Of a stretch of DNA of 64,000 nt, positions 24,280 to 33,000 are shown in pieces (position 1 is the first letter of the stretch; each line of letters begins with the position of its first letter). The notes beneath the pieces were generated by a model. It made no database searches. It was not told the DNA's origin and was given only the letters and a program-made list of their open reading frames with translations. Source of the DNA: Boswellia sacra (taxonomy: Eukaryota; Streptophyta; Magnoliopsida; Sapindales; Burseraceae); the NCBI GenBank assembly GCA_013180625.2, contig SNVD02015047.1, forward strand, positions 558,001 through 622,000. Direction: 5' to 3'. Made by a program: the position numbers and the translations under genes.

Positions 24280-24848
24280 ATTGGTACCCGTGACGGACCT
24301 ACACAGGGACCCAGGGGGGCCTGGGCCCCTTCTGAAATTTGAAAAATTCACTTTGATCCCCTTATTTTAGATAGTGACTCTTATACCCTTTTCTTAAAAA
24401 ACTTAATTAATTTCAAGTTTTACATTATTTTTTCATTTTCTCAATTCTTTCACCTATAAAAACCTTTCATCCATACAACAATATAAGTTTATATATTAAT
24501 ATAATTAATTGTTACTTTTTTATTTAATTATAGAATTTTAGATTTTTTAATTCTTATTTATTTAGTTTGACATAAATTATATCACTACAAGAGAAGGAGG
24601 TATATACTACGGTCTTTTACGGCAGTTTTTTAAAACCGCGTTAAATAGTGATACGCGCATATTATTTACGGAAGTTTGTCAAACCGCCGTATAAAGGGTG
24701 TTGAAAACCCCAAAATCATTTACCCTAATGTTGCCCAATCTTTCAATTTCTAGCTCTCTCATCTCTCTCTAAACTCTCTCAAATCATCCTAGATCTCTCT
24801 ATAACTCCCTTTCACTCACTATCCTCACCATTTCTCGAGACCAAAACA

Positions 24849-24911
24849 ATGGCAACTTTGGACTCCGACGTTTCGATGGTACCGGTTGACAAGGCGTCAC
24901 GTGAAGCCAAC
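24849..24911 (+). pseudogene. RBX1: RBX1 N-terminal fragment (captured)
   Basis: ATG at 24849 opens MATLDSDVSMVPV, which matches the start of plant RING-box protein 1, the RING subunit of SCF ubiquitin ligases. Similarity ends after about 15-20 codons; the RING domain is absent and the frame stops at TAA 24912-24914. The preceding CT-rich leader (24745-24848) probably came from the same gene. Because the fragment is short, the assignment is moderate. It lies at the left end of the CACTA cargo, directly before the SAH hydrolase fragment. Confidence 0.55.
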
Positions 24912-24960
24912 TAAAAAAACGCCAGTCCTTCTAAAATCAAACAAAGCTATATTAGATTCT

Positions 24961-25412
24961 CTTCTTGAGAAGACCACGAGCGGCCATGAGTACAAGGTGC
25001 GGGACTTGTCCCAGGCTGACTTCGGCCACCTCGAGATCGAGCTAGCCGAAGTGGAAATGCCCGGACTCATGGTGTGCCGCACCGAGTTCAGGCCTCCCAA
25101 CCCTTCAAGGGAGCCAAGATCGCTGGCCCCCTTCACATGACCATTTAGATCGTCGTTCTCATCGAGACCCTCACTGTCGTCGGCGCCGAGGTCCGCTGGT
25201 GCTCCTACAACATCTTCTCCACCCAGGACCATGCTGCTGCCGCCATCGCCCGGGACTCTGCTACTGTATTCGCCTGGAAAGGTGAGACCCTGCAGGAGTA
25301 CTGGTGGTGCACCGAGAGAGCCCTCGACTGGGGCCCTGGTGGTGGCCCGGATCTGATTGTGGATGATGGAGGTGATGCCACGTTGTTGATTCATGAGGGT
25401 GTGAAGGCTGAG
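24961..25412 (+). pseudogene. S-adenosylhomocysteine hydrolase N-terminal fragment (captured)
   Basis: The source enzyme converts S-adenosylhomocysteine to adenosine and homocysteine in the methyl cycle. The first frame reads LLEKTTSGHEYKVRDLSQAD, then FGHLEIELAEVEMPGLMVCR. A shift near 25085-25095 moves the match to the next frame: FKGAKIAGPLHMTI, a stop (TAG) where Gln is expected, then VGAEVRWCSYNIFSTQDHAA, ATVFAWKGETLQEYWWCTER and GPDLIVDDGGDATLLIHEGV. The match ends at KAE, so only about the first 150 of about 485 residues are present; the NAD-binding domain is missing. GC content is far above the surroundings. A 189-codon frame on the opposite strand is only its shadow. Confidence 0.92.
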
Positions 25413-29127: not shown

Positions 29128-29585
29128 GTCTGATAGTTCCACTTGTAGACTTGGCATTCTATTTGTTACGTGTGAAAGTTTTATTTTCCATAATGGTTTT
29201 CTTTTGACAAAATAGAGATATTTTGTATTACTCTTTTGTGAATTTTCTAATCAGAAGTTTGAATTATAATGATTTGTGTAAATTTACTTATCAGATGATT
29301 AAAATATATGAAAGTTGTTGAACTATTTAACTGACATATTGTTTAACTGTTTGATTATAACGTGTTGAATAGTGTGGATGATGATTGCGTTATATTTAGT
29401 TTTCTTGGATTATGATTGAACCATTATATGAGATATTTTTGTATTTGATTTGATTTCATTATATTCATTGAATGAATGATTATAGAATTATATCAAAACA
29501 TTTTTCTGAGACATGTTAATTATTTTGTAAATAGTAAATAAATATAGAATAGCACACGCAGCGAAAATTTGAAAATTTTTTCTAA

Positions 29586-30096
29586 CTATTTACGGCGGTT
29601 TTTCGGTTGACACAAAAAAAATTTCTAACTATTTATGGCGGTTCTCCATCAACCCACGATAATTGTACAAAAATTGTATAAACTTTTTTCTAACTATTTA
29701 CGGCGGTTTTCCGGTTGACCCAAAAAATTTTTTCTAACAATTTACGGCGGTTCTCCATCAACCCACGACAATTATGCAAAAATTGTATAAACTTTTTTGC
29801 GGCGATTTTTTGACTTTTTACGGCGGTTTTATGTCTGTCGTAAATAGTACTTTTTACGGCGGTTTCCTGTCCGTCGTAAATAGTACTTTTTACGGCGGAA
29901 AAAAACCGCCGTAAAAAGGTGTGTTGATGTCAAATCCTGTTTCGTCGCTTTTTTTGCGTCGAACAACTAAACCGCCGTAAAAATGATTTTACGGCGGACT
30001 AAAACCGCCGTAAAAGCTTTTACTGCGGTTGTTTTTGCGGCGGTTTAGAACCGCCGCAAATGATTTTTTACGGCGGTTTTGGCCCGCCGTAAAAAG
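29586..30096. repeat. CACTA right subterminal repeat array (TTTACGGCGGTTTT)
   Basis: About half a kilobase dense with direct and inverted copies of TTTACGGCGGTTTT and related words (TTTGCGGCGGTTTAG, AAACCGCCGTAAAA). Such arrays are the transposase-binding zones of CACTA elements. Neighbouring inverted copies can fold into hairpins. A sparser version is at 24605-24700. Confidence 0.85.
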
Positions 30097-33000
30097 TCAT
30101 CCCTGTTGTAGTGTATGTTTCTCTTTGTGTTTTCTTTTGTAGTCTTAAAAAATTAATTAATTGTTGCTAGAAGAGTATTAATTTGAAAATCTTGATAACG
30201 ATAATAACTAAATCTTTTTATAATTTTTAATGCAATTAAATATCATTAAAAAATTATGTGTAAGAGACTTACTTTATTTCATTTGTTTGTAGTCTTTTTC
30301 AACCAAAAAAAATGTATTATAAAATAATCTTCTTTGAACAATTACACATAGAAATTTTGAAAGAAAATCTACTTGTTTGTTGACATCAAGTTCAAAGAAA
30401 ATTAATACTCCTTATAAATTATAATTTTGAGCACTTATAATTCTAATGTCCTCTTATCTGAATATAATTTTATTATTTTTTAATATATTCTTTTACCTTA
30501 AGTTTTATCAAGTGAATTATAAATATTCAAATGTCTAAAGTGCCCCCTCTCTCATAAATTTCTGGGTCCGCCACTGATTGGTACGATACATTACACATTT
30601 TTTAATTGATTAACACCTCTTTTATATAAATTAATATATCAATTGATATATCGCTTGGGACATTATTCATATTGTAATATGCTTCGGCCGAATATGTTTC
30701 CCCACGGGAAAGGGCAATGTTAGGTGCGGGGTTTACTCTGAGCATTAATACAATGTTGTTCGATCCCTCTGAAGTCCAAATTGGGCATTTACGTTTTCAT
30801 AAGATTTGATCTATTTTAAGAAAATCACGTGTTTGGGTTATATGTTAGAGATGACAAAAGGCGAGGCCACTCATGGGTCCGCCCGGCCTGGCCCACAATT
30901 TGGTTTGGACTATCTACTGCAGTGAAAGTTGGGCCTATGTCTGATTTGTTGGAGGGTCAGGCGAAGCCACATGTATTAGCCGTAGGATGACCTGCTAGGC
31001 CACTATGGGCCTTTTTAAGTTACATTAAATCAATCGTTTAAAAGAATTACAATAAATAAAACTCTTCATTCAACTACATTAAATCAATCATTTTTTAAAA
31101 AAATACGTTAAATCAATTTTTGTTAATTACATTCAATCATTTTTTATAATTACATTAAATAATAACTATTCATTCAATTAAGTTTTTAGCCCTTTATGAT
31201 TTTATTATTCATTCAATCAAAACGTTCAAAAACTTCTACTAACATAGAAATAATTTTTTTTATTTTTCAAATTATTGTTAATTTTTGTCTCTTAAGTATT
31301 TATTAATTAAAATAAATTAAACATTATAAAATTATAAAAATAAAAAATTTAAGAATCATAAAAAATGTAGAAATATAGTATTTTTAAATAAGGTTTACTA
31401 TTGTATTAGTTCTATTATTAATCACATAAAATTTTCTTTAGCAATTGCAATTAATAAAAGTTCTATTATAGAAACAAATTTTGCCTTCTGAGTATTTAGT
31501 AATTAAAATTGATTAAAAAATTATTGGAATTACCTCTTCAGTTGCCATTTTTGCCTAAAAACCCTTTGGTGAAATAGTGATGAAAATCCACACAATAAAG
31601 AGTAAGCTTAAGGGTATGTTTGTTATATTCATATTTTCCCTGTAATCAATGATAATGAGGGAGAAAGAAATAAGGGTAAAGAATGTATCTATGCACCAAA
31701 CTAATTAATCTGAAAAATAATAATTAATTAGGATGCATAAGTAATGAAATTTTAGAACAACATGTTAGTTATGATAAAAAATCGGTTTTAAAAAGTCTGA
31801 TTTAGGAATAATATCATATTCAAGAACACATCCTAAATATGAAACCAATATTAAACATTAATATGTAACAATATCTAACTAGTCTTATATATATTATATT
31901 TGTTTAATTATACTGTTAATTTGATATTTCATTTTATCTATAATATTAGGTCAACCACTTTTACGGCTAATTTTCCCCCTAAAGTTTCTGATGCCATCAC
32001 TTCCTCTCCATCATTTCATAAATAATCAGCCATCTCTACTATCATTCAATTTCATCATTGTTAACCGAAAAAAAAAAATGAGATCAAGATTTTTTTTTAA
32101 ATTATGAAATAATTAAACAGAGATAAAAAGTGAAAAAAATTACCAAATTATCATATTTTAGGTAAGATTAAGCTATTTATAACTTGAATTTGACTTAATA
32201 AATTCTTGACAATAATCGATAACGGTTTGTTTATTATAGCCTAATAGTTGTAAATTTGATAAGTTGTGAACAAAAATATATAACTACTTTCCAATTTCTC
32301 TCAATTATAGTGAAATGAAAATTTAATAGATCCATTGTATTAAAGCTAATAATGTGATACGCATAATAATCATAAATCATAATTTGTCTTGTTGATATAT
32401 ATCACTTCTTTGATACCTGGGAATTTTATTTTATGGGGTCAAATCAGCATAACATCTTACCATCGACTAAATTTAATACAATAGATGTACTTTAGATTTT
32501 CACTTGCCGAGACTCATAGGTCATTCATGAATTTTAAGTATTAATTTAAATAAAAGAAATTAAGTTGTAGTAACTTAGCCCTTTGGTCAAACTTTATTGT
32601 TTGCTTGTTTGTTTTAGTTCATTTTAGATAAAGTTTTTAGGACAATTTATAGTATTAGAGAAAATTAACGGTGAGATTGATAATTAGCTTATCTTAAAAC
32701 TCAAAGATTAATTAAAATAAGGAGTAGCAACTGACTGCCCACGTCCCTCATCACTCAATTCACAAGCTGTCACTTTATAGCAACCATAAAATAGATTTTT
32801 TTATATATTTTATTCTTTTTAATTATATATTTAACCCCGTCACAACCCAATTCAAAACCCTACCTCTTTACTTAAAAACTCCTTAAAATTTAGGAACACC
32901 ATTATTTGATGGGTAATATAATTGAAATGAAATAAATTTATCATAAAATAAAATAAAAATATGTAAACATATAGTATAATACGAAATAATTAGTACAGTA

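What the first reader, a model, noticed from the sequence alone, without database searches (positions are those of the whole stretch)
24583..30113. CACTA transposon carrying pieces of at least four host genes
Between canonical CACTA ends with a TAT duplication lie fragments of SAH hydrolase, fumarylacetoacetase, an importin-9-like receptor and a BSK kinase, plus a probable RBX1 start. All are in plus orientation, from unrelated pathways, with introns kept and with stops or frameshifts. Transposons that capture several genes are known, but five in one 5.5-kb element is a strong case, and shared orientation raises the chance of a chimeric transcript or of regulatory small RNAs against the parent genes.
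Basis: partly seen in the sequence, partly recalled or inferred. Interest (0 to 1): 0.8.

Follow-up and report, generated by a model that had tools for sequence, protein, structure and literature searches.

The report
Jumping gene carrying host gene scraps
A 5.5-kb plant CACTA transposon carries stitched-together pieces of at least eight ordinary host genes; elements like it are known, but this one is unusually rich and its seams hint at how the pieces were joined.

Summary
Window 24583-30113 is a complete CACTA element without its own transposase (TAT duplication), inserted in a high-copy repeat; 40 of 40 scored copies of that repeat lack it. Its own genome (638.6 Mb, unnamed plant) holds three more copies. 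Missed were a TOPLESS-type last exon, a MYB gene stretch, an antisense WD40 exon and two unnamed loci, giving ten donors. Sister elements carry subsets of the outer cargo (SAHH in 12 element loci); the middle block was found only in the four copies. This suggests serial capture with newer cargo inside, although donor distances do not follow that order neatly. Eight donor-donor seams share more bases than chance (18 against 5.6, P=0.0005), one holds a 12-bp microinversion, and no clear internal transposon end remains. I favour template-switching gap repair over the published 'DNA between two insertions' model, which is weakened but not excluded. Splice sites are kept; transcription and small RNAs are untested. 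It is a Pack-CACTA, closest to soybean Tgm-Express1: a new member of a known kind.

The parts
24580..24582 (.). target site duplication TAT, left copy (right copy 30114-30116)
   Evidence: 40 of 40 scored copies of the host repeat span the joined site (779 candidates)
24583..24844 (+). native CACTA 5' end with the terminal inverted repeat CACTACAA
   Evidence: 88-91% in 6 of the 15 other family loci compared, weaker or partial in 3 more; further places
24843..24898 (+). RBX1 exon 1 piece (6 bp of leader plus 50 bp of coding start)
   Evidence: 87.5% to the RBX1 gene at C3986; also in sister elements C5761 and C6413
24929..24970 (.). piece of an unnamed donor locus X (C3527)
   Evidence: 88.6% over 44 alignment columns
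24965..25413 (+). S-adenosylhomocysteine hydrolase, exon 1 piece with a stop and a 1-bp frameshift
   Evidence: 94.7% and 94.2% to open genes C7204 and C2373; Pfam and PDB
25414..25425 (-). 12-bp microinversion of TOPLESS sequence at the SAHH/TOPLESS seam
25426..25573 (+). TOPLESS-type co-repressor, last exon and what follows it
   Evidence: 95% to C4598, which holds a LisH_TPL domain 7 kb upstream on the same strand; the exon itself gave no TOPLESS match in PDB or Pfam, its name is recalled
25559..26426 (+). fumarylacetoacetase: introns, exons 2 and 3, first bases of exon 4 (exon numbers by my count from the donor)
   Evidence: 84.6% with gaps, 7.1% substitutions, to C3251, which has FAA_hydrolase_N
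26422..27359 (.). DNA from locus C6214, not named
   Evidence: 81% over 687 columns and 77% over 353 columns
27386..27458 (-). exon of a WD40-repeat protein, antisense (ZFWD-type by recall)
   Evidence: 98.6% to C7415:948747-948819; WD40 1.4e-5, just under its curated cut-off
27454..27475 (+). 22-bp copy of the importin exon, repeated within the element
   Evidence: identical to 27705-27726 (D8)
27540..27592 (.). 53-bp piece from C7415, 11 kb from the WD40 exon
   Evidence: 92.5%
27643..28003 (+). importin-9-like receptor, exon pieces and the intron between, one frameshift
   Evidence: 93% to C5858 and C1336; PDB importin-9 E 0.0015
28008..28495 (+). stretch just downstream of the first exon of a MYB gene (RADIALIS-like by recall)
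   Evidence: 96% to C5674, whose exon has Myb_DNA-binding 2.9e-7
28486..29275 (+). BSK-type kinase, exons and introns, with an internal deletion of about 294 bp at 29024
   Evidence: 95-96% to C4341; the missing stretch is kept in copy C1640
29276..30113 (+). native CACTA 3' end with subterminal CGGCGGTTT repeats and the terminal inverted repeat
   Evidence: 65-80% in 11 of the 15 other family loci compared; repeats

Best explanation
It is a non-autonomous Pack-CACTA element. Shown: its ends, duplication, empty sites, copies, donors, seams and which sister elements share which cargo. Inferred: mobilisation in trans by one of the many CACTA transposases in this genome; capture when a double-strand gap inside the element (after abortive excision or a broken replication fork) was filled by synthesis that hopped between unrelated chromosomal templates at short matches, leaving the ends intact. 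Because each gap lies inside the ends, older cargo (RBX1-X, SAHH-TOPLESS on the left, BSK on the right) stays outside and newer cargo (FAH to MYB) lies in the middle. The element then jumped as a unit to at least four loci. The cargo most likely has no protein function now.
For: Ends, TSDs and copies (matching TSD in 2 of 4 copies); empty sites; donors on ten contigs, with second copies on C2373 and C1336. Seams: in 8 donor-donor seams the shared bases are 1,4,0,2,5,5,0,1, total 18 against 5.6 for random breakpoints within 250 bp, P=0.00054; a ten-seam version gave 31 against 8.0, P=5e-5. A 12-bp microinversion at SAHH/TOPLESS; a 22-bp importin repeat joined to the WD40 piece by 5 shared bases. 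No terminal or CGGCGGTTT motif inside, and only two weak 26-33-bp matches of the 3' end to the interior (E 0.03 and 0.08). Around the FAH, BSK, MYB and two SAHH donors (10 kb each) one search found no family end; one search shows one 124-column, 65% match to the 3' region near the C7204 SAHH gene. Cargo sharing: FAH, WD40, importin and MYB in 0 of 15 other family loci (three of them held only in part), RBX1+X, SAHH, TOPLESS and BSK in subsets; genome searches agree. A second lineage (C3725 and four more copies) is also a mosaic, with the same BSK donor. Transposase_21: 150 of 150 scored places over the cut-off, 1265 candidates.
Against: Four of the eight seams share 0 or 1 base, and I set the seam positions after seeing the alignments. 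Substitution distances to donors do not follow the outside-in order: MYB 0.038, BSK 0.034-0.052, SAHH 0.054, importin 0.058, FAH 0.075, C6214 0.169, RBX1 0.144 over 56 bp. So the middle block is several events, or C6214 is not the true donor, or donors differ in constraint. Earlier insertions beside the donors could have left without trace, so local hopping is not excluded. About 175 bp of the interior is unassigned.
Confidence: 0.68

Rival explanations
1. Local hopping: two nearby insertions of the same family are mobilised as one element and carry off the DNA between them (Catoni 2019 model, as told in PMC8903248 and PMC13317346; the 2019 paper itself was not held).
For: Published for Pack-CACTA and other Pack-TYPE elements, and it also predicts that newer cargo lies inside.
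Against: Each donor would need its own pair of insertions, yet no clear internal end or subterminal repeat survives, donors are on ten contigs, pieces are as short as 22-73 bp, and seams show microhomology and a microinversion.
Confidence: 0.17
2. Recombination between CACTA elements: a left half (RBX1-X-SAHH-TOPLESS) and a right half (BSK) from two elements were joined, and only the middle was newly captured.
For: Left and right cargo occur in different sister elements.
Against: It explains only the arms; the FAH-to-MYB block with five donors still needs another process. It is compatible with the best explanation as one step of it.
Confidence: 0.3
3. The cargo is kept for a function: chimeric transcripts, or small RNAs that act on the donor genes (SAHH above all, carried by 12 element loci).
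For: Nine splice sites kept and the two FAH exons open; 151 of 429 21-mers of the SAHH piece are identical to the C7204 gene; SAHH in 12 element loci.
Against: Stops and frameshifts; Ka/Ks to donor 0.38 (SAHH, C7204) and 0.65 (FAH), about what a freely drifting copy beside a constrained gene gives. C>T/G>A changes gather at CG and CHG sites (39 of 361 against 23 of 877 at CHH), which fits a methylated, silenced element; but the reverse direction shows the same bias more weakly (18 of 315 against 19 of 898), and without SAHH the two directions are close (25 of 232 against 16 of 206).
Confidence: 0.08
4. The block is a set of intact neighbouring genes or an assembly artefact.
For: Fragmented assembly (7431 contigs).
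Against: Four copies with the same order on four contigs with different flanks, and uninterrupted target repeats.
Confidence: 0.01

Closest known systems
Tgm-Express1 of soybean (PMC1947982; abstract, Background and Discussion sections read)
   Same: A 5.7-kb CACTA element with exons and introns of five unrelated host genes; the kept splice sites are used there as cassette exons.
   Different: Here ten donors in 5.5 kb, three further copies, and sister elements that bear on the order of capture. Here the element lies in a repeat, not in a known gene intron, and expression is unknown.
[quoted passage not shown] abstract and the sections on acquisition and captured genes read)
   Same: Non-autonomous elements with host coding DNA; [quoted passage not shown] newer DNA is proposed to lie inside.
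   Different: That paper explains capture by re-mobilised neighbouring insertions; the seams here point to template switching.
Pack-TIRs of animals, gap-filling and FoSTeST models (PMC8277862; abstract and passages read)
   Same: Microhomology at breakpoints, mostly beyond chance where tested, template switching, then transposition of multicopy forms; the authors leave plant Pack-MULEs open.
   Different: Animals; here a plant CACTA with ten donors.
CACTA gene capture on wheat chromosome 3B (PMC4290129, passages) and in Chenopodium (PMC8978399, passages)
   Same: CACTA elements with captured genes or fragments; in wheat 17 captured genes are put down to exon shuffling among 36 parents.
   Different: The passages I saw give no seam analysis.

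Membership tests
CACTA (En/Spm) superfamily | terminal inverted repeats beginning CACTA | tested here: met
   CACTACAAG...TTGTAGTG
CACTA (En/Spm) superfamily | 3-bp target site duplication | tested here: met
   TAT here, TCC in C6174; no match in C6685 and C1640, whose ends are mutated; sisters ACT and TCA, AAA and ATA
CACTA (En/Spm) superfamily | subterminal repeats in both orientations | tested here: met
   CGGCGGTTT or its complement, 1 at the 5' side and 9 at the 3' side
Pack-CACTA | no transposase of its own | tested here: met
   all but about 175 bp of the interior is assigned to donors; 10 open pieces gave no transposase in Pfam; the only open frame of 130 aa or more in the element is the antisense of SAHH
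Pack-CACTA | host DNA with a traceable donor elsewhere in the genome | tested here: met
   ten donor loci
Pack-CACTA | mobile as a unit | tested here: met
   four copies with the same cargo, two with matching TSDs, empty sites for this one
Pack-CACTA | moved in trans by a CACTA transposase | not testable with these tools
   transposases are abundant but none was linked to these ends
Tgm-Express1-like expressed chimera | captured exons spliced into transcripts | not testable with these tools
   nine of nine splice sites looked for are kept; no RNA data

The most novel reading that the evidence does not exclude
This CACTA family has picked up and amplified SAH hydrolase (12 element loci), the enzyme that plants need to keep DNA methylation going, together with TOPLESS co-repressor and RBX1 pieces. 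Small RNAs or chimeric RNAs from these copies would weaken the very genes that silence the transposon, so the cargo would be a counter-silencing device rather than debris. The roles of these genes in silencing are recalled, not tested here.
Probability: 0.05. Interest if true: 0.8.

Novelty: new member of a known kind. Interest (0 to 1): 0.42.

Why it matters
How DNA transposons pick up host genes is still argued over. This family offers donors, several stages of cargo build-up and readable seams within one genome, so the two main models can be compared directly. It is also a ready source of spliceable exons that can land in genes.

Tried and rejected
Rejected: the idea that the RBX1-like start is only the element's own leader. 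C3986 matches it over 56 bp and carries part of the RBX1 zinc domain about 1.9 kb further on. Not settled: one SAHH capture or two. Borders differ (el 383-831 here; from 412 and past 831 in C1275, C5589 and C4138). Of sites where both intact genes agree, both groups carry a change at 11, three of them fixed in all seven copies (one of those lies at the seam, outside SAHH in the C1275 group), against 26 and 52 private sites; one early capture with later deletions and two captures from an unsampled donor both stay open. Unresolved: names of donors X and C6214 (three open pieces of C6214 gave no Pfam match; X was not searched by protein). The importin C-terminal Pfam model rang nowhere, controls included, so that call says nothing. 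Copies differ by K 0.0098 and 0.0108; under a recalled rate of 6.5e-9 per site per year that is under 1 million years, but the rate for this plant is unknown. The C1640 distance is inflated by its rearranged 3' end and is not used. Species not identified; no protein-database, structure-prediction or viral-collection search was run. A per-copy table timed out and was redone.
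Full report
What is there. The stretch 24583-30113 starts CACTACAAGAG and ends TTGTAGTG, with TAT on both sides. Its native ends are about 262 bp on the left and 838 bp on the right, the latter full of CGGCGGTTT-type subterminal repeats. Joining the flanks with one TAT gives a sequence that occurs elsewhere in one piece: 40 of 40 scored places (779 candidates) span the joined site at 89-99% identity, so the element inserted into one member of a high-copy repeat.

Copies. 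The window's own genome (G000, 638.6 Mb, 7431 contigs) holds three other copies: C6174 (99%, TSD TCC/TCC), C6685 (98%, both ends mutated) and C1640 (96% over its main matching part, a 349-bp deletion, and the roughly 295 bp of BSK that the other three lack). Every cargo piece is present in all of them, in part for BSK in C1640.

Cargo, left to right. RBX1 exon 1; a 42-bp piece of an unnamed locus X; SAH hydrolase exon 1; a TOPLESS-type last exon; fumarylacetoacetase introns with exons 2 and 3; DNA of locus C6214; an antisense WD40 exon; a 22-bp importin copy; a second C7415 piece; importin-9-like exons; the stretch after exon 1 of a MYB gene; BSK kinase exons. Donor loci and identities are in the parts list. 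Evidence for names: SAHH; FAH; BSK; RBX1; importin (E 0.0015, after a shorter query failed); TOPLESS (LisH_TPL domain 7 kb upstream on the same strand of C4598; the exon alone gave no TOPLESS match; C4166, the other match, has no LisH_TPL hit and may be partial); MYB; WD40 (just under the cut-off). 'ZFWD-type' and 'RADIALIS-like' are recalled names.

Its 'all plus' is right for its five, not for the WD40 exon. Its 'stops or frameshifts' does not hold for the FAH exons, which read through 66 codons.

Order of capture. Sister elements with the same 5' end carry RBX1+X (C5761, C6413; C6157 and C5360 match the same stretch), SAHH without RBX1 (C1275, C5589, C4138), or 5' end + SAHH + TOPLESS (C4880). 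SAHH pieces sit in 12 element loci, each beside the native 5' end, besides two open genes and a 74% relative, C7427. Of nine loci fetched for the 3' end (L020-L028), five carry BSK sequence and four only the end. FAH, WD40, importin and MYB are in none of the 15 other family loci compared, of which C5761, C6413 and C4880 were held only in part; C6214 shows only two 60-column, 75% matches. Genome searches with these pieces found the four copies, the donors and shorter or weaker matches. By sharing, the outer cargo is older and the middle younger. By distance to donors the picture is less tidy: FAH (0.075) and C6214 (0.169) in the middle are further from their donors than BSK (0.034-0.052) on the outside.

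Seams. Eight donor-donor seams were tested against random breakpoints within 250 bp in the same donors: total shared bases 18, mean 5.6, P=0.00054 in 100,000 draws. Three seams carry most of the signal (4, 5, 5), one has 2 and four have 0-1. Seams with unassigned bases between donors (other than the 4-bp filler between importin and MYB, which was tested), those beside the second C7415 piece and those with the native ends were left out; seam positions were set by me. The SAHH/TOPLESS seam holds 12 bp of TOPLESS in inverted order, next to GAGG shared with SAHH. The importin repeat and the two C7415 pieces alternate, as if synthesis went back to the same templates. No terminal or subterminal motif is left inside.

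Mechanism. I read this as gap repair with template switching inside a CACTA element, followed by transposition of the product. [quoted passage not shown] the Chenopodium authors point to a mechanism by Rubin and Levy (PMC8978399), which I recall as abortive gap repair. It differs from the local-hopping model given for Pack-TYPE elements (PMC8903248, PMC13317346), which this evidence weakens but does not exclude. My one search combining CACTA, host gene fragments and microhomology returned only PMC8277862.

Fate. Ka/Ks to the donor is 0.38 for SAHH and 0.65 for FAH, with a stop in SAHH. C>T/G>A changes against donors gather at CG and CHG sites: 39 of 361 against 23 of 877 at CHH, P=2e-8. The reverse direction shows 18 of 315 against 19 of 898; the excess in the element is modest (P=0.018) and nearly gone without SAHH (25 of 232 against 16 of 206). 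This is compatible with a methylated element, not proof. Nine of nine splice sites looked for are kept. Whether it is transcribed is unknown.

Judgement. Pack-CACTAs with several donors are known; Tgm-Express1 has five in 5.7 kb and maize Pack-CACTAs hold the most loci of the Pack-TYPE groups. Ten donors with a partly readable history is a rich example, not a new kind.

Noticed in passing
L040 (G000:C4880:352500-353700): The SAHH copy in this sister element has exon 1 joined to exon 2 as if spliced; both open genes have an intron of about 514 bp there. It may be capture of a processed copy.
   Followed up: partly
L023 (G000:C3725:41500-51499) and four relatives on C1275, C5801, C2245, C5546: A second multi-donor CACTA lineage in five copies, with stretches matching C5615, C20, C6929 and the same BSK donor C4341.
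   Followed up: partly
window from about 24290 on, both flanks: The element sits in a high-copy repeat (779 candidates, 40 scored, all spanning the site in one piece).
   Followed up: partly
window 15750-16301 (+): Open frame with a SAGA-Tad1 domain (7.7e-17): likely a real host gene.
   Followed up: no
window 62905-63636 (+): 243-aa open frame, no Pfam match over its cut-off; looks like the start of a hAT-type transposase to my eye.
   Followed up: no
G000 contigs C5858 and C1336: The importin donor and a nearby RING domain occur with equal scores on both, so the assembly may hold both haplotypes in places.
   Followed up: no
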